A stretch of 64,000 bases of DNA from Proteiniphilum acetatigenes DSM 18083 (GTDB lineage Bacteria; Bacteroidota; Bacteroidia; Bacteroidales; Dysgonomonadaceae). Position 1 is the stretch's first letter; each line of letters starts with the position of its first letter. This document shows positions 14,665 to 21,187 of the stretch, piece after piece. The stretch is from contig NZ_KB905696.1 in the NCBI RefSeq assembly GCF_000380985.1, positions 124,001-188,000 of the forward strand, given 5' to 3'. The translations under genes were made by a program, and so were the position numbers. The notes below the pieces were generated by a model. It had not been told where the DNA came from and did not search any database. It saw only the letters and a list, made by a program, of their open reading frames with translations.

Positions 14665-15828
14665 TCACCCTTTCTGATAGATCGACTTAAATTTGAACGT
14701 CAGAAAAACCAGATAAGCTACGCAAACCGTCAATACAATAACAGCCCCTGTTTGCCCTCCCAAACTATCGGAAGCCACACCCATCAGCAGTGGAAATACA
14801 GCACCTCCGGCTATTCCCATGATCATCAGTCCTGATATCTCATTGCTCCGGGCTGGCATATACATCATAGCACGCGAGAAAATAATCGGGAATATATTAG
14901 AGTTACCTAATCCTATCAAAGCAACACATATATAGATCGTTATCTGATTATAGCTAAAATAAAGCCCCAGGATTCCGAACAGAATCATACAAACGCTTAC
15001 TGTAAAGAAATTTCGTGGAGGAAATTTAGCCAATATAAAAGTACCTGCAAAACAACCGAACGTTCTGAACAAAAAATAAAGACTGGTAGCATATCCGGCA
15101 TCTGCCAATACCATGCCGACTCTTTCTATCAGGAGCTTAGGGGCAGTAATATTCACCCCTACATCTATGCCTACATGGACTAATATACCTAAGAAGAGAA
15201 TGAAAATAACCTTATTTTTCAACAATCCAACACACTCCTTAAAAGAAGATGGTTTTCCCTCTATCACATGCTCTTTGATCTCTGTAAAATACAGATAAAC
15301 CATAGCAATCAGAGTGGCAACAGCAAAAAGAGGAAATAAAAGTTTCCAATTCCCGTAATAGATCAATGCCTGGGCAGCAATAACAGGTGCAATAAATGAA
15401 GCAATTGCTTTCACAAACTGTCCCATTGTAAGATAACTGGGCAGTTTATTTCCCTGAACGATATTTGTCAATAAGGGATTAAGGGACACCTGCATCAAAG
15501 TATTCCCCAATCCCAATAAAGAAAAGCAGAGTAACATCGAAAAACCGGTATAGATCAAAAATGGGATACACAGCCCTATAAAGGTTACAACTAAACTTAG
15601 CAATACAGTTTTTTTACGTCCTATTTTATTCATCAGTATTCCTGTCGGAACAGAAAACACAAGGAACCATAAGAATACCATGACCGAGAAAGCATTGGCC
15701 GCGGTATCGGAAAGAGCAAAATCACTTTTCACATAATTCGTTGCTATTCCGATCAGGTCAATAAATCCCATTGTAAAAAAGACAAACATTACTGGAATTA
15801 TTTTTTCGATTATACTCTCTTTTTTCAT
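14665..15828 (-). CDS. FHS-type MFS sugar permease
   Basis: The 387-residue protein has about 12 membrane segments and belongs to the major facilitator superfamily. The fucose/glucose/galactose (FHS) signature is recognisable in LLGLGNTLMQVSLNPLL near residue 110, and PTGILMNKIGRKKTV near 61 is the MFS loop 2-3 motif. It should carry the monosaccharide from periplasm to cytoplasm by proton symport. It lies between susD and the FGGY kinase. Its ATG is embedded in TCGTATG, which is complementary to a segment 5' of it in the leader (see 15822-15923). Confidence 0.85.
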   Translation of the reverse strand: MKKESIIEKIIPVMFVFFTMGFIDLIGIATNYVKSDFALSDTAANAFSVMVFLWFLVFSVPTGILMNKIGRKKTVLLSLVVTFIGLCIPFLIYTGFSMLLCFSLLGLGNTLMQVSLNPLLTNIVQGNKLPSYLTMGQFVKAIASFIAPVIAAQALIYYGNWKLLFPLFAVATLIAMVYLYFTEIKEHVIEGKPSSFKECVGLLKNKVIFILFLGILVHVGIDVGVNITAPKLLIERVGMVLADAGYATSLYFLFRTFGCFAGTFILAKFPPRNFFTVSVCMILFGILGLYFSYNQITIYICVALIGLGNSNIFPIIFSRAMMYMPARSNEISGLMIMGIAGGAVFPLLMGVASDSLGGQTGAVIVLTVCVAYLVFLTFKFKSIYQKG

Positions 15829-15923
15829 ACGATAATATTTAATTTTTTACACTATGGTCGTATGGAACTCGCATATTATCATATTCTTGTGTGAGAACAG
15901 TTATCATGCTCATTTCATACGAC
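15822..15923 (-). promoter_or_regulatory. PUL leader element A: alternative pairing around the MFS start codon
   Basis: Plus-strand CATACGAT (15826-15833, covering the MFS start codon), GTCGTATG (15857-15864) and CATACGAC (15916-15923) are alternately complementary. In the minus-strand transcript the middle segment CAUACGAC can pair either with the upstream GUCGUAUG (8 bp) or with UCGUAUG at the start codon (7 bp). A related element B precedes susD, where all three segments carry a matching base change. 37 bases (15886-15922) match 17929-17965 at 33 positions. Function is inferred only; protein operators are an alternative reading. Confidence 0.5.
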
Positions 15924-16028
15924 TATTTTATTTGTTTTCGTTATCCGTCCATCAATTAGTCTCCGTTTCAGCGATATTTTCTGCCAATCGGCAGCAGTCA
16001 TCCGGCTTAAATGAGTACAGAGAAAGTT

Positions 16029-16066
16029 TCTCAGCGGTTGGATTAAACTATTCCAAACCGCTGAGA
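16029..16066 (-). terminator. Stem-loop just after susD
   Basis: TCTCAGCGGTT (16029-16039) and AACCGCTGAGA (16056-16066) form an 11-bp stem, extended by a further GGA/TCC helix after one bulged base. It lies about 10 bases after the susD stop. There is no U-tract on the minus strand, so partial termination or 3' end protection separating susCD from the permease and kinase is more likely than full termination. Confidence 0.6.
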
Positions 16067-16076
16067 GCACTTTGTT

Positions 16077-17795
16077 TTACCATCCTGCATTTTGTTTATA
16101 CAATCCCTTCACATAGCTGATCTGCTGCTGAGGGATGGGAAAATACTCATCCCGATTCTTCGTAAATTTGGCATCCTTCAGGTAGGAACGCCTTTCTTTT
16201 TCCACCTCAAAATATTCATTCATAAATTCTGCGGCAATACCCCAACGCACAAGGTCAAAAAACCATTTCCCTTCGGTAGAAAACTCCAGATGACGCTCCC
16301 AGCGAAGTGCCTGCATGGCAAAATCCTTTGTCCATGGCGGACAATTGACTCCGGGTTTATATGGCTGAACGTCAAATTTACCCGTAGGTGTCCCATCTTC
16401 AAATACCAATCGTCCCGTACTGTTAGCGGCACGCTCACGAACCTTATTAATCAAAGACAATGCTTCGTCCATATTTTGCTCCAATTGGATCAATACTTCT
16501 GCACGCCACAGCATCACTTCATCCAAACGCAATACATCCCAGTTTAAACCAGCACCCATAAAGGGATTAGTCTTTTTAAAACAATCGCTGGTAGGTAAAA
16601 CCAATAATTTCTGACTCATCGAATATCCGTAAACTTCCGGTGTACGCACCCAGTTTTCTTCCATAATATAAGATGGTTCATATTTCCAGGGCATACCCGG
16701 TACACAGGCAGTATGCATCAGACGCGGATCCATCGGCATTTCAGCGAAAGCCGCCTTATTATCTAATGTTCTTCCCTTATTATAATTCTCAAAATCAGGA
16801 ACCCCATTCACCGTTTTGTGCCGGTTCATCATATTGACAGAAGGCTGTAAAAATCCGCAACATCCATAATCGGAATTTACCGGTGAAACCAACCACGAAT
16901 TTAAACGTCCCTGTGGCGTGTCTGTTGTGTACTGAATAGCCCAGATAGATTCCGCTCCGTTCTGGTATTCACAAAGAAAATTCTCTGCAAAATCGGGGGC
17001 CAGGGAACTTCCGGAATTGTCAATAATATCCTTGCATAAAGAAGCGACTTCAGTCAGCTTATCCCGATTGACATTGATTACATTATGCTTATCATCCTGT
17101 TCATAGGCTGCAAAAATCAACGTCTTGGCCAGATAAGCTTTCGCAGCAAACTTTGTCGGCCGACCCACCTCATCCTGTCTTTCAGGTAGTATTTGCGCTG
17201 CATACCGGAAATCGTCAATAAGTTTTCCCCATAATTCATCATTTGTCAGTTCATCATTACTTACCTTATCATACATCTCTTCCGGGGTATCTTCATCGAT
17301 ATAAGGGAAGAATTTGAAACACAGTTTCATATACATATAGATGTGTCCACGCAGAAAGCGAAGTTCTGCAATACGCTGCTCCCGAAGGGGGTACTCCTCT
17401 GGTGTAAGATTCTTAACCTTCCGCAAAGCATCGTGAATACGTCCTACGGCAACATAATGTACCCACCATAGGTTATCCAGATCACCTACATTCGTAGGCT
17501 GCAGATAAGTAAAGGTCTCCCATCGGTTCCTCTCTTCATTATCGTTCGTACCGGAACCTCCTTTATAAGCTTCTCCCCCTCTTACTGAACCTTCTTCATA
17601 AGGCATGCCAATCTGCTTGTTAAAGTGATTCTGTCCGCAAAACGAATAAGCAGCATTTATCATTTGTTCTACCCTCTCCGGGGTATTCAGGTCTTTATCG
17701 GCGACCACTCCCTGTGGTTTTGTTTCAAGCATGGATTCACATGCGGAAAACAACGAAAGGAATAAACCCAAACTGATTATTTTGACCGTTTTCAT
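16077..17795 (-). CDS. SusD/RagB family outer-membrane glycan-binding lipoprotein
   Basis: I start this 572-residue protein at the ATG at 17795, which gives a lipoprotein signal MKTVKIISLGLFLSLFSAC with Cys19. The longer frame to 17855 uses GTG and places the signal internally. The mature protein has the SusD pattern of TPR helices (LREQRIAELRFLRGHIYMYM) and the C-terminal RERAANSTGR, ALRWERHLEFSTEGKWFFDL and YFPIPQQQI segments typical of RagB/SusD. It sits on the cell surface and caps the SusC transporter to bind the oligosaccharide. It is directly downstream of susC in the leftward PUL operon. Confidence 0.95.
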   Translation of the reverse strand: MKTVKIISLGLFLSLFSACESMLETKPQGVVADKDLNTPERVEQMINAAYSFCGQNHFNKQIGMPYEEGSVRGGEAYKGGSGTNDNEERNRWETFTYLQPTNVGDLDNLWWVHYVAVGRIHDALRKVKNLTPEEYPLREQRIAELRFLRGHIYMYMKLCFKFFPYIDEDTPEEMYDKVSNDELTNDELWGKLIDDFRYAAQILPERQDEVGRPTKFAAKAYLAKTLIFAAYEQDDKHNVINVNRDKLTEVASLCKDIIDNSGSSLAPDFAENFLCEYQNGAESIWAIQYTTDTPQGRLNSWLVSPVNSDYGCCGFLQPSVNMMNRHKTVNGVPDFENYNKGRTLDNKAAFAEMPMDPRLMHTACVPGMPWKYEPSYIMEENWVRTPEVYGYSMSQKLLVLPTSDCFKKTNPFMGAGLNWDVLRLDEVMLWRAEVLIQLEQNMDEALSLINKVRERAANSTGRLVFEDGTPTGKFDVQPYKPGVNCPPWTKDFAMQALRWERHLEFSTEGKWFFDLVRWGIAAEFMNEYFEVEKERRSYLKDAKFTKNRDEYFPIPQQQISYVKGLYKQNAGW

Positions 17796-17966
17796 ATGAC
17801 TAAAATTATTTATTTTCAATGGTGTCATATGGAACTCGCATTTAGTCATGTTCACTGAAGTTAGTCGTTTTCTACGCTCAACATAGTAAAAACAAGTTTT
17901 TCCTATGTATTCGCTTATCGAAAACGTTCTTGTGTAAAAACAGTTATCATGCTCGTTTCATATGAT
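17789..17966 (-). promoter_or_regulatory. PUL leader element B: alternative pairing around the SusD start codon
   Basis: Plus-strand CATATGAC (17793-17800, over the susD start codon), GTCATATG (17824-17831) and CATATGAT (17959-17966) repeat the arrangement of element A. In the transcript the middle CAUAUGAC can pair with GUCAUAUG at the start codon (8 bp) or with the upstream UCAUAUG (7 bp). The flanking segment GGAACTCGCAT next to the middle arm is identical in A and B. Unlike A, element B contains an extra hairpin at 17866-17926. CATATG is self-complementary, which weakens this copy taken alone. Confidence 0.45.
17866..17926. repeat. Nested hairpin inserted in PUL leader element B
   Basis: Outer arms CGTTTTC (17866-17872) and GAAAACG (17920-17926) enclose a second hairpin, ACATAGTAAAAAC (17881-17893) against GTTTTTCCTATGT (17896-17908), with one mismatch. 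Element A lacks this block, so it looks like a small insertion with terminal inverted repeats. Confidence 0.6.
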
Positions 17967-17986
17967 TTCTTATTTTTTATTACTAC

Positions 17987-20900
17987 TTAAAATGAAATAT
18001 TTACAGCAAATGTCATTGAGAATGGCAACGGGTAACTATTCCCCGGTGTTTCAGGATCAAGCCCCGTATAAAGATCATCACCCCATGTCTTTTTCAGGGT
18101 AAGTACATTATCGGCCCTCAATGCTAAACGAACTCTGTTTATTTTTGCTTTTTCCAATAACACTTTAGGAACTGTATATCCTAATTCCATATTTCGGATC
18201 TTCATATAGGAACCGCTTTCCACATAATAGGTAGAAAAACGCCCCTCATCGTTATAGTTATTAATGGACATAGCCGGAATAGTAGTATTTGTATTGGTCG
18301 GTGTCCATGCATCCAGTATACGCGTACCATAGTTCTCTCCCGAGGTACTTAATGCATAAATATCGGTCCATGATTTCCAACCACCTACATTCAATTTCTT
18401 TCCAAATATCCCATTTAAGAATACAGAGAAGTCAAAATCTCTCCAGGTCAACCCCAGATTAATACCATACTCCAGTTTTGGGTCCTGGTTACCTAACCAT
18501 GTACGGTCTTCGCTGTTGATTTTGCCATCGCCATTGATGTCACGATAACGGATCCGTCCGGGAGCAGCACCTACCTGAGTAGCGTGGGCTTCCACTTCTG
18601 CCTGGGACTGGAATAAACCATCGGCAATATATCCATACATAGAAGTACGCGAACGCCCTAAAACATTCTGGTCTGTTCCGTTCCCGGCAAAATTGTTAAT
18701 TACCTCTTCCGGCACTTTTACGATCTTCTGCTTATTATGTGAGAAAACTCCACTGACATCAAAGCCGACTTCTCCTATTTTGTCCGTATAACTTAGAGTC
18801 AGTTCAAATCCTTTATTATCTATATCGGCACCGTTTAACCACATATGAGCTCCCTCACCCAACGTGGCAACTGTTCCCGGCTTCATCAAAATATCGGTTG
18901 TCTTTTTGATATAATAGTCGAGGGAGCCTCCTAATTTTGAATTGAAGAACCCGAAATCTACACCAATATTATGTTGAGTAGTTGTCTCCCATTTCAGATT
19001 CGGATTGTTTCGCTGTGTCCGGCGAAAACCCGAAGGCAGGTTATTTCCTCCCTGGCCTGTGAAATCATAGGCTGTACCCCAGTTCCAATCATGGGAATTA
19101 TAGTCATACAAAGCCTGATACATTAAATAGGCTGCATAATCATCAATTCGTGAATTACCATTTTGTCCCCAACCATACCTGAGTTTCAAAATAGAAAATC
19201 CGGACAGCGCATCTCTCAGGAAAGCCTCGTTATTCAAAGTCCATCCCAGTGAGAATGCGGGGAATGTAGCCCAACGATTATTTTCTCCAAAGACAGAGGA
19301 AGCATCCCGCCGGAGAGTAAAGGAGGCCAGATAACGGTTATCATAATTATAATTGGCTTTACCAAACCAGGATATCAAAGTATTATGGCTGGAATTACCC
19401 CCGTTATCACGATCCTCTTCACCGGCATCTAACTGCATATACTCAGGCGTTTCGAGTGCAAACACACGACGGCTACCCCAATGGTGCTGATAATTATGAT
19501 CTATAGTCTCCTGACCGAGCATAACATCAAAATTATGTTTATCCACATCAAATACATATTGCAGGATGTTACTGTTATTCCAGTCGAAGTTATAACCGGA
19601 CGACTGAGTCACTTTATTTCGGCTCTCGCTCATGAAACCGGATTTATATGTCAAATCCATTATTCTCCTTGTCTGACCGACAAAATCTATACCGAGAGAG
19701 GAACGGAAAGTCAAACCTTTCAATAATTCAATACTGATATAGCCATTTCCAAACAAGCGCAAATTATCCTGACAATTCTGTAGATTATCCTCTATCAGTC
19801 GAACCGGATTCTGACGGTCACTCATCCCGCCGATAGGTCCTCCCCAACCTATTCCATCCACCGTATGAACCGGCACTATGGACATCAGCGACTTGGTAGA
19901 ACCTAAATTACCGTCACCTATATTGGGATTGCTTCTCCATTGAGAAATCGTAAAATTCTCACCGACCCTAACCCGGCCGTCCAACCAACTGTAGTCCGTA
20001 TTGACCCGACCATTGAAACGTCTGAAATAACTACCTTTAATTGTTCCTTTATTATCATAAAGATCCAGTGCGAACAAGGCATTACCACTATCGGTACCCG
20101 AAGAAAGCGTAATATTGTATTGTTGGATTTGTCCGGTCCTGAGTATTTCTTTTTGCCAGTCTGTATCAGCCGAACGCATTGTCTGTTCTATCGGATCCAG
20201 GAACTCTCTCCAGGAGACGTTATCCAATACCCAGTTTCCATTTGCATCCTGATGATCCTCATACCGGTATAAACCTCCGTGCCCATTCACATAACCAATA
20301 CCTACCTGATTAGGGTCGACATTCGGATTATCATTTTTAATTGCCCAATATTGAGCAATACCCCGTTGCTCGGTATTCATGAGTCCATACGGTTTCTTAC
20401 TACTGGTCACCGTATAGGAAGCTTTAAAATCTACTGTAGTTCCTCTCTTCCCTTTACGGGTTGTTATGATAATAACCCCGTTGGCCGCACGTGAACCATA
20501 AATAGAAGCGGATGAAGCGTCTTTCAAGACCTGAATTGATTCGATATCCAACGTGGCAAGCTCTTCCATGGAGCGGGTTGTAGGTGTACCGTCAATTATA
20601 TACAAAGGGTCGTTGTTGTTCAATGTTCCTTCTCCACGAATACGTACGGTAGCTCCGGGATTGGGTGAACCATTTGCGGATACTGCCATACCTGCCACCC
20701 TCCCCTGAATTGCACGCATGGCACTTCCGGTAGTGCTTGAACGGATCTGATCAACTTTTACCACAGATACCGCACCCGTCAGGTCTGCTTTTCGCTGGGT
20801 GGTATAACCTGTCACAACAACCTCTTCCAGATTCAAGGCATCTTCATTCAGCCGAATGACAATATCCTTTGCACTCGATGCCGGAACTTCTATTGTCTTA

Positions 20901-21187
20901 TAACCGATAAAACTCAATACTAATGTACCTGTACCCTCCACAGTCAGAGAGAAACGGCCATCAATATCCGTTATTGTTCCATTACTTTCCTTGTCCTTCT
21001 CTACGATAGAGACGCCAGGTAAAGGATCTCCCATTTCATCAAGGACAATACCTGTTGCTACTACTTTCTGCTGATTCACTTCACCGGAACGACCGGAAGC
21101 ATATACACTCTCCGGAATAGGGAACAGAGAAGCCACAAGTATCATACAACACATTGTTTTTTTCTTTAAAAATGCTACCTGATTCAT
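17987..21187 (-). CDS. SusC/RagA family TonB-dependent outer-membrane transporter
   Basis: The 1066-residue protein starts with a signal peptide ending near SVYA. A CarboxypepD_reg-like domain (ATGIVLDEMGDPLPGVSIVE near residue 44), the TonB box-like LEEVVVTGY near 120, a plug domain (IRGEGTLNNNDPLYIIDGTP near 188) and a long beta-barrel ending in Phe (MTFAVNISF) follow. It lacks an N-terminal STN signalling domain, so it is a transporter only. It imports the oligosaccharide bound by SusD using TonB energy. A GH32 gene precedes it and susD follows. Confidence 0.96.
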   Translation of the reverse strand: MNQVAFLKKKTMCCMILVASLFPIPESVYASGRSGEVNQQKVVATGIVLDEMGDPLPGVSIVEKDKESNGTITDIDGRFSLTVEGTGTLVLSFIGYKTIEVPASSAKDIVIRLNEDALNLEEVVVTGYTTQRKADLTGAVSVVKVDQIRSSTTGSAMRAIQGRVAGMAVSANGSPNPGATVRIRGEGTLNNNDPLYIIDGTPTTRSMEELATLDIESIQVLKDASSASIYGSRAANGVIIITTRKGKRGTTVDFKASYTVTSSKKPYGLMNTEQRGIAQYWAIKNDNPNVDPNQVGIGYVNGHGGLYRYEDHQDANGNWVLDNVSWREFLDPIEQTMRSADTDWQKEILRTGQIQQYNITLSSGTDSGNALFALDLYDNKGTIKGSYFRRFNGRVNTDYSWLDGRVRVGENFTISQWRSNPNIGDGNLGSTKSLMSIVPVHTVDGIGWGGPIGGMSDRQNPVRLIEDNLQNCQDNLRLFGNGYISIELLKGLTFRSSLGIDFVGQTRRIMDLTYKSGFMSESRNKVTQSSGYNFDWNNSNILQYVFDVDKHNFDVMLGQETIDHNYQHHWGSRRVFALETPEYMQLDAGEEDRDNGGNSSHNTLISWFGKANYNYDNRYLASFTLRRDASSVFGENNRWATFPAFSLGWTLNNEAFLRDALSGFSILKLRYGWGQNGNSRIDDYAAYLMYQALYDYNSHDWNWGTAYDFTGQGGNNLPSGFRRTQRNNPNLKWETTTQHNIGVDFGFFNSKLGGSLDYYIKKTTDILMKPGTVATLGEGAHMWLNGADIDNKGFELTLSYTDKIGEVGFDVSGVFSHNKQKIVKVPEEVINNFAGNGTDQNVLGRSRTSMYGYIADGLFQSQAEVEAHATQVGAAPGRIRYRDINGDGKINSEDRTWLGNQDPKLEYGINLGLTWRDFDFSVFLNGIFGKKLNVGGWKSWTDIYALSTSGENYGTRILDAWTPTNTNTTIPAMSINNYNDEGRFSTYYVESGSYMKIRNMELGYTVPKVLLEKAKINRVRLALRADNVLTLKKTWGDDLYTGLDPETPGNSYPLPFSMTFAVNISF

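What the first reader, a model, noticed from the sequence alone, without database searches (positions are those of the whole stretch)
15822..17966. Paired PUL leader elements that can sequester the start codon of the next gene
Before the MFS permease and before susD, three segments share one motif: an upstream arm, a middle arm complementary to it, and the start codon region, also complementary to the middle arm. In the first all three carry CGTATG/CATACG; in the second all three carry CATATG. The change is thus matched in each copy, which suggests mutually exclusive pairing (start codon free or blocked). Only one position is informative and CATATG is self-complementary, so statistical support is limited. 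TF operators are the main alternative.
Basis: partly seen in the sequence, partly recalled or inferred. Interest (0 to 1): 0.8.

Follow-up and report, generated by a model that had tools for sequence, protein, structure and literature searches.

The report
Tiny mobile repeat replacing start codons
The two look-alike leaders are copies of a roughly 100-base DNA element, found in many Bacteroidota, that inserts itself mostly at gene start codons and supplies a new one, with its two ends matched to a strip inside it that appears built to hold them together.

Summary
On the minus strand, before the MFS gene and before susD, lie two copies of one element with three matching arms: L (upstream), B (middle), R (start codon). 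It is not a PUL switch but a dispersed repeat (40 model matches at E<=0.01 in this genome), seen in 43 of 395 phylum genomes (host included). Most copies sit at starts of unrelated genes. Close relatives show exact empty sites: the element enters after NTG, mostly of a start codon, and brings its own ATG. In 131 copies, B and R triplets are exact complements in 94 (shuffle mean 13.6, maximum 26); host bases beside L match in 12 (mean 4.6, maximum 12). A structure-free covariation scan ranks B:R first, L:B next, a third helix fifth. B can thus hold both ends together. Best explanation: a non-autonomous mobile element with guide-like single-strand insertion (IS608 logic); start-codon hiding in mRNA is possible but secondary. 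The enzyme is unknown: no Y1 transposase and no integron integrase above cut-off in the host. No Rfam match in the loci tested; no description in the open-licence papers searched.

The parts
15823..15924 (-). Element copy 1 (no nested insert), between the end of susD and the MFS permease gene
   Evidence: R1 match 112.1 bits, E 3.4e-19 (this copy is in the model); R2 15823-15921, 81.9 bits, E 9.6e-14 (not in that model)
15906..15923 (-). Copy 1, L arm: host-side GTCGTATG plus element AAATGAGCAT
   Evidence: sequence
15873..15882 (-). Copy 1, A arm (ATGATAATAT), pairs with R' just upstream of the start codon
   Evidence: the A:R' pair is the fifth strongest of all column pairs in the family
15856..15874 (-). 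Copy 1, B arm (ATGCGAGTTCCATACGACC), the splint complementary to L and to R
15823..15838 (-). Copy 1, right end R'+R (ATATTATCGTATGAAA) with the MFS start codon at 15826-15828
17789..17965 (-). Element copy 2, between susC and susD, with a nested insertion
   Evidence: R1 match 17790-17888, E 3.5e-9; R2 matches 17790-17887 (E 2.3e-7) and, weakly, 17899-17964 (E 0.021)
17949..17965 (-). Copy 2, L arm (TCATATGAAACGAGCAT)
   Evidence: sequence
17850..17925 (-). Nested hairpin repeat of another dispersed family inside copy 2 (approximate limits; GAAC on both sides)
   Evidence: query part 41-112 recurs alone at many places in the genome
17841..17849 (-). Copy 2, A arm (ATGACTAAA)
17823..17841 (-). 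Copy 2, B arm (ATGCGAGTTCCATATGACA)
17789..17805 (-). Copy 2, right end R'+R (TTTTAGTCATATGAAAA) with the susD start codon at 17793-17795
   Evidence: the protein from 17795 matches SusD_RagB
14665..15828 (-). MFS permease gene
   Evidence: PF07690, E 2.3e-27
16077..17795 (-). susD-like gene
   Evidence: PF07980, E 9.1e-31
17987..21187 (-). susC-like gene
   Evidence: PF07715 and PF00593

Best explanation
Both leaders are copies of a ~100-bp non-autonomous mobile element of Bacteroidota. SHOWN (by comparison of genomes): it is dispersed, absent from the same junctions in relatives, and inserted just 3' of an NTG, mostly that of a start codon. Its left end is AAACGAGC; its right end is CxxATG, so the downstream gene starts on an ATG supplied by the element. 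An internal strand B (GCGAGTTCCATxxG) is complementary to the left end by its 5' half and to the right end by its 3' half, and both pairings covary. A further covarying pair joins the A arm to the bases before R. INFERRED: B is a splint or guide that aligns the two ends (and, in a circular or tandem form, the continuous junction CxxATGAAACGAGC) and, in insertion, pairs with an ATG in single-stranded target DNA in place of R. An enzyme supplied in trans cuts and joins. This is the logic of IS608: insertion 3' of a short target kept in the left flank, chosen by base pairing. Start codons are hit because the guide reads ATG(A)AA and because insertion there is harmless when the element restores a start codon. 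In mRNA the same B:R pairing may lower translation of some genes as a by-product.
For: Empty and filled sites: rplY-pth junction, element seen by eye in 3 of 30 loci read, host included, and absent from G010, the nearest by Pth (97%). Six further host sites gave 30 rows in six other genomes, 4 filled and 26 empty (a seventh site gave no row; some rows are only 67-78% identical). groES-like gene: TTTTAGTAGT-ATGAACATT in G010...CGTAGT-ATGAAACGAGC...AAATCGT-ATGAATATT in the host. Site L067: the host flank keeps TTG at the left while the right end has ATG, so ATG belongs to the element. B:R covariation: 94 of 131 exact, shuffle maximum 26; A2, 84 distinct rows, model without B:R: 43 two-sided cells against 12.3 shuffled and score 0.217 against 0.101, both 0 of 500; A3: score 0.321 against 0.104 for L:B plus B:R. 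Structure-free ranking: B:R first and second, L:B third and fourth, A:R' fifth. Among copies at least 80% alike, 323 pairs differ on both sides, 234 of them with both perfect, 70 on one side only. Tandem copies share one ATGAAA junction. Two copies at different places of the host are 95% alike (L065, L067). G-U pairs are not enriched in B:R, which fits DNA pairing. IS608 logic: passages of PMC5934647.
Against: No enzyme identified. Y1 transposase (PF01797): 0 matches in G000, G015 and G007; 6 of 39 genus genomes have matches, among them the high-copy genomes G010 (one, E 1.2e-5) and G018 (two fragments with stops); the 10 Y1 loci gave one element match at E 0.16. No movement was observed; all evidence is between species. 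19 of 85 model matches do not open an ORF of 50 codons at R, and 38 of 131 pattern copies open fewer than 60 codons. The rlmN-like site lies 15 bases before the start codon, at a non-ATG word, and the TTG of L067 may not be a start codon. Unlike IS608 there is no covarying hairpin between B and R. Two of the five measures do not exceed shuffles (pairs changed on both sides 88 of 500; pair types 389 of 500). Covariation cannot separate ssDNA from RNA folding. Some left flanks carry what look like older element remnants, which blurs the boundary.
Confidence: 0.6

Rival explanations
1. One reading: a cis-acting RNA switch. B pairs with L (start free) or with R (start hidden), and this regulation is the reason the element is kept.
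For: B:R includes the start codon and covaries. With L removed, B:R is predicted above 0.5 in 91 of 131 copies. R opens an ORF of 50 codons or more in 66 of 85 model matches.
Against: No shared gene function seen; empty orthologous sites in relatives for housekeeping-type genes; L core and R can bind B together (30 of 131) and window copy 1 is predicted hardly ever to use B:R; G-U pairs not enriched in B:R; the host triplet beside L matches B in only 12 of 131.
Confidence: 0.2
2. An attC-like folded single-strand site recombined by a tyrosine recombinase (integron-type or host Xer), with ATGAAA as crossover.
For: In tandem or circular form the stem has an A-C mismatch and a tandem G-A mismatch, a variable loop, and ends that meet at one junction; resemblance to attC recalled.
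Against: Integron integrase (TIGR02249) reaches its cut-off in only 1 of 14 element-bearing genomes, not in G000; no attC core motif GTTRRRY/RYYYAAC by inspection (motif recalled). Sub-cut-off matches, likely other tyrosine recombinases, occur in 14 of 14, so this is not excluded.
Confidence: 0.15
3. An RNA-level retroelement: a transcribed, folded RNA copied into DNA by a reverse transcriptase in trans.
For: Eight genomes with 12 to 57 copies each have a PF00078 match (that of G020 below the cut-off); four with 0-4 copies (G001, G005, G008, G022) have none.
Confidence: 0.1
4. The covariation is not selected: replication or repair copies one arm from the other through the hairpin, which keeps B and R complementary.
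For: Coordinated two-sided changes far outnumber one-sided ones between close copies (323 against 70), with two triplet codes even within one contig (L189).
Against: Needs the arms to meet repeatedly in one molecule, which again implies a folded or circular form; L:B and A:R' covary as well.
Confidence: 0.2
5. Inverted operator sites for a transcription factor.
For: Inverted repeats upstream of genes.
Against: The half-sites take 13 exactly matched forms, two of them within one contig, which no single factor would be expected to read; elements lie before unrelated genes.
Confidence: 0.03

Closest known systems
IS200/IS605 family (IS608, ISDra2) and derived non-autonomous elements
   Same: Insertion 3' of a short target kept in the left flank, own copy of the site at the right end, no terminal inverted repeats, internal bases complementary to both ends (PMC5934647 passages). 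Tandem junctions are seen; circles were not looked for
   Different: No TnpA gene in the element, no Y1 match in the host; one shared splint instead of a guide beside a hairpin at each end; target is NTG, mostly of start codons; about 100 bases; extra covarying right-end bases
REP elements and TnpA-REP (RAYT)
   Same: Small high-copy intergenic folded repeats with conserved stem mismatches (PMC8266576 passages)
   Different: No GTAG tag in the consensus, two to five times longer than the 20-50 nt given there, precise gene-start sites, no Y1 match in the host
Integron attC sites / gene cassettes
   Same: Folded strand with mismatches, variable loop, circle junction (recalled)
   Different: No attC core motif by inspection, no gene, integrase above cut-off in 1 of 14 genomes
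Correia, RUP, BOX and other MITE-type repeats
   Same: Small, dispersed, non-autonomous (recalled)
   Different: No terminal inverted repeats; supplies the start codon; ends matched to an internal strand
Start-codon-sequestering leaders / riboswitch-like expression platforms
   Same: Arm complementary to the start codon, competing arm upstream
   Different: Mobile; no common regulon seen; arms can pair together; no Rfam match

Membership tests
IS200/IS605-type (non-autonomous) | Insertion 3' of a fixed short target that stays in the left flank | tested here: met
   NTG kept at the left, element ATG at the right; the rlmN-like site is an exception (non-ATG word)
IS200/IS605-type (non-autonomous) | Cleavage sites read by base pairing with internal guide bases | tested here: inconclusive
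   Complementarity and covariation shown; that it directs cleavage is not shown
IS200/IS605-type (non-autonomous) | Guide 5' of a hairpin at each end | tested here: not met
   One B strand serves both ends; no covarying helix between B and R among the top 40 column pairs. The single-sequence fold of copy 2 does show a weak small hairpin there
IS200/IS605-type (non-autonomous) | HUH Y1 transposase available | tested here: not met
   0 matches in G000, G015, G007; 6 of 39 genus genomes, including fragments or a weak match in G018 and G010
REP/RAYT | GTAG or CGTC tag beside the palindrome | tested here: not met
   Absent from the consensus of 131 copies, by inspection
Integron attC | Integron integrase in the genome | tested here: not met
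   Over cut-off in 1 of 14 element-bearing genomes (G439), not in G000
Integron attC | Core sites RYYYAAC / GTTRRRY (recalled) | tested here: not met
   Left and B strands read ATGAAAC / GTTCCAT, by inspection
DDE-type MITE | Terminal inverted repeats | tested here: not met
   Ends AAACGAGC and CxxATG are not inverted copies; the complementary strand is internal, by inspection
DDE-type MITE | Target duplication of variable sequence | tested here: not met
   Only ATG(AA) is shared by both sides, and at L067 the sides differ (TTG/ATG)
Rfam cis-regulatory RNA | Match to a described family | tested here: not met
   No match at E<=1 for window 15700-18100 nor at E<=0.1 in five other loci
Start-codon-sequestering RNA switch | Covarying helix that includes the start codon | tested here: met
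   the ATG:CAT pairs themselves hardly vary, the neighbouring pairs do
Start-codon-sequestering RNA switch | Change of translation when the helix changes | not testable with these tools
   needs reporters

The most novel reading that the evidence does not exclude
A phylum-wide class of miniature elements that home to start codons: one internal strand aligns both element ends and reads the target ATG by base pairing, the inserted copy takes over translation initiation of the host gene, and matched end triplets (xx) change together so that sublineages carry their own end code. The enzyme would be a single-strand nuclease or recombinase not yet linked to such elements.
Probability: 0.35. Interest if true: 0.9.

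Novelty: new variant of a known kind. Interest (0 to 1): 0.8.

Why it matters
If right, a good number of Bacteroidota genes, housekeeping ones included, have had their start codon and leader replaced by a mobile element. That affects start-codon annotation, leader and operator predictions in PULs, and studies of translation initiation in a phylum that makes little use of Shine-Dalgarno sites (recalled). It also offers a natural guide-and-target element with several matched end codes, useful for finding a new single-strand transposition enzyme.

Tried and rejected
PUL-specific regulation: rejected, since elements precede unrelated genes. The window susD has no relative above 44% identity among 39 genus genomes, so no empty site could be shown for the window copies themselves. 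Transcription factor operators: rejected on the many matched half-sites. RAYT/REP: no Y1 match in the host; not excluded as a past or visiting enzyme, since 6 of 39 genus genomes have matches. Integron integrase: below cut-off in the host. Autonomous versions with a gene between L and B: a scan of the loci found one L-B pair further apart than usual (264 bases) and 48 lone ends; the lone ends were not followed up, so gene-bearing copies are not excluded. Viral carriers: 2 stretches only, not examined further. Rfam: none in the loci tested. Papers: the listings showed no description of such an element (open-licence PMC only; titles and abstract starts seen). Only PMC5934647 and PMC8266576 were opened, as passages.

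R1 was built from copies ending in ATGAAA (10) or ATAAAA (1), which favours that ending in its matches. Two of the 85 rows of A2 are loci of one copy (L063/L072). For the empty-site search I gave 7 of the 18 host junctions listed with long ORFs; of the Pth matches I read 30 of 37 rows. In one search only 10 candidates per genome were scored, so copy numbers and prevalence are lower bounds. A3 used 60 of 107 diverse copies, and its model R2 contained B:R; searches do not depend on that model.
Full report
WHAT IS THERE. The window is a stretch of one contig of a 4.78-Mb genome (G000). On its minus strand runs a set of genes: a GH32-family enzyme, susC, susD, an MFS permease and an FGGY-type kinase (Pfam). 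They are real. In sense orientation copy 1 reads GTCGTATGAAATGAGCAT...(A arm)...ATGCGAGTTCCATACGACC...ATTATCGTATGAAA, the last ATG being the MFS start. Copy 2 has CATATG in all three arms and ends on the susD start. Copy 2 carries an extra hairpin of about 76 bases between L and A; that hairpin is itself a dispersed repeat (query 41-112).

A GENOME-WIDE FAMILY. A search with copy 2 found 56 matching stretches in the host genome, many of them to the nested repeat only. A covariance model from 11 natural uninterrupted copies (A1, R1) found 63 rows at E<=1 in the host, some of them two rows for one interrupted copy, and 40 at E<=0.01. It matched 20 of 24 other genomes of the genus. Of the 80 titles shown, 78 name Bacteroidota as far as I can judge from the names; the other two are 'bacterium BMS3Abin03', which NCBI leaves unclassified. 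A second model from 60 diverse copies (A3, R2) matched 43 of 395 genomes drawn from the phylum, host included, in 22 of 171 genera, with only ten candidates scored per genome. Rfam 15 gave no match in the stretches searched.

IT SITS MOSTLY AT START CODONS. Of 85 model matches, R is ATG in 80, followed by AAA in 76 (the model itself favours ATGAAA), and opens an ORF of at least 50 codons in 66. Of 131 pattern copies, 90 open at least 60 codons, 38 fewer, 3 run off the locus; some of the short ones look like tandem copies. As a rough control, 65 of 205 intergenic or start-codon ATGAAA words in the same loci open an ORF of 80 codons, against 66 of 85 element ends; the control words include element ends. 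The genes are unrelated: pth, groES-like, hutH, uxaC, sucC-like, susD-like and others. These names are mine from the sequences; no family search was run on them outside the window.

EMPTY SITES. At the rplY-pth junction, 30 loci of the genus were read by eye. Three carry an element (G000, G015, G013, with clearly different sequences) and 27 show none that I recognise; three of those (L124, L134, L145) end in TCAAATG after an AT-rich stretch, which may be remnants. G010, with a 97% identical Pth, reads AAAGAGAGTGTGAA-ATGAAATATTTG. The host reads AAAGAGAGAGGT-ATGAAACGAGC...TTGTCGT-ATGAAATATTTG. Seven more host sites were queried in six other genomes; six gave 30 rows, 4 filled and 26 empty, some rows at only 67-78% identity; one gave none. 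The groES-like site is the cleanest: GTAGT-ATGAACATT empty, GTAGT-ATGAAACGAGC...AAATCGT-ATGAATATT filled. At L067 three of four relatives have TTGAAA(G/A)ATATG; the host keeps TTG at the left and has ATG at the right, so the right-hand ATG comes with the element. At the rlmN-like gene the insertion is 15 bases before the start codon, at a non-ATG word. Tandem copies share a single xxATGAAACGAGC junction (for example L002/L072). For the window's own copies no orthologous junction was found in the genus sample (best susD relative 44%).

THE FOLD. In 131 distinct copies from the loci, the three bases after CAT in B and the three before ATG in R are exact complements in 94 (shuffle mean 13.6, maximum 26 of 2000 shuffles). 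The three host bases beside L match B in 12 (mean 4.6, maximum 12), a small excess that tandem insertion may explain. There are 13 exactly matched forms, among them CATCCG/CGGATG, CATACG/CGTATG, CATGTG/CACATG, CATCTG/CAGATG, CATATG/CATATG, CATCAG/CTGATG and CATTCG/CGAATG. On the 84 distinct rows of A2, whose model did not contain B:R, the helix has 43 two-sided cells against 12.3 shuffled and covariation 0.217 against 0.101 (0 of 500 shuffles each); slid versions reach at most 0.075. Two of the five measures, the number of pairs changed on both sides and the number of pair types, do not exceed shuffles. On the same B columns, pairing with the L side fails in 22, 26 and 35 rows, pairing with R in 5, 8 and 14. 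A mutual-information scan of all column pairs of the 131 copies, with no structure assumed, ranks two B:R pairs first and second, two L:B pairs third and fourth and an A:R' pair fifth. So B can hold the left end with its 5' half and the right end with its 3' half, and A:R' would add a pseudoknot. Among 176 distinct copies, pairs at least 80% alike outside these triplets differ on both sides in 323 cases (234 with both perfect), on one side in 70 and on neither in 229; two codes occur even within one contig, L189. These pairs share members, so they are not independent events. G-U pairs do not exceed chance in B:R (3 and 3 of 130 at the two variable pairs, below the shuffled counts), which fits DNA pairing slightly better than RNA pairing.

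INTERPRETATION. The ends, the kept target, the own right-end site, the absence of terminal inverted repeats and the internal strand that matches both ends are what guide-based single-strand transposons show. IS608 inserts 3' of TTAC, which stays in the left flank; guide bases pair with the cleavage sites and with the target; a circular junction is the intermediate (passages of PMC5934647). I therefore think this is a non-autonomous element moved as folded single-stranded DNA, with B as the guide and ATG as the target. The enzyme is unknown. Y1 transposases gave no match in the host nor in G015 and G007, but fragments or a weak match in two other high-copy genomes, G018 and G010, and matches in 6 of 39 in all; the ten loci around them gave one element match at E 0.16. 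Integron integrase is above its cut-off in 1 of 14 element-bearing genomes, not in the host. Reverse transcriptase matches follow copy number roughly, but genome size confounds this. The element is not filed as an IS200/IS605 member, because a guide beside a hairpin at each end and a Y1 enzyme in the host were tested and not met.

B:R does cover the start codon, so start hiding is possible. Predicted RNA folds give mean probability 0.51 for B:R and 0.59 for the L:B core over 131 copies, both above 0.5 in 30. Window copy 1 shows almost no B:R (though its start codon is paired elsewhere at 0.58), copy 2 shows 0.81. The two pairings are thus only partly exclusive and their balance differs between the two window copies. 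As the main reason for the element's existence I give this 0.2.

LIMITS. All mobility evidence is comparative. Element limits at the left are uncertain by one to three bases, because ATGAA is shared. Left flanks sometimes seem to hold older remnants (hutH site). No paper describing the element appeared in the listings of the searches of open-licence PMC papers; subscription papers were not searched.

Noticed in passing
window 17850-17925 (-) and host loci such as L040-L041, L044, L048-L052, L054-L059: A second dispersed hairpin repeat (about GTTTTCGATAAGCGAATACAGAGGAAAAACTTGTTTTTACTATGTTGAGCGTAGAAAAC) occurs alone at some two dozen places or more and nests inside the loop of some start-codon elements.
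   Followed up: partly
L014/L035, L034, L026, L019, L007: Further nested inserts at fixed places of the element (after TTTGAA; between GAGTT and CCATATG), as if its loops are landing sites for other small repeats.
   Followed up: no
L002/L045/L072, L113, L189, L216, L223, L264, L287, L295: Copies that look tandem: the start codon of one copy is the entry site of the next.
   Followed up: partly
L069 (host) and L322 (G010): A shared copy with R = TCGTATA and B = TATACGA: the start codon word is absent and the pairing kept; the gene (rlmN-like) starts 15 bases further on.
   Followed up: partly
rplY-pth junction: L119, L121, L144: Three species carry different sublineages of the element at the same start codon, with empty sites in relatives: a hot spot or replacement.
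   Followed up: partly
element L arm, 42 of 117 copies with an L ATG: The old start codon at the left opens a mini-ORF of 2 or 4 codons, which could couple or compete with initiation at the new start.
   Followed up: no
window 16029-16066: Perfect 11-bp inverted repeat (TCTCAGCGGTT/AACCGCTGAGA) just after the susD stop, perhaps a terminator or processing hairpin inside the gene set.
   Followed up: no
The eight high-copy genus genomes tested have reverse transcriptase matches and four low-copy ones none, with G023 against the trend; genome size is a confounder.
   Followed up: partly
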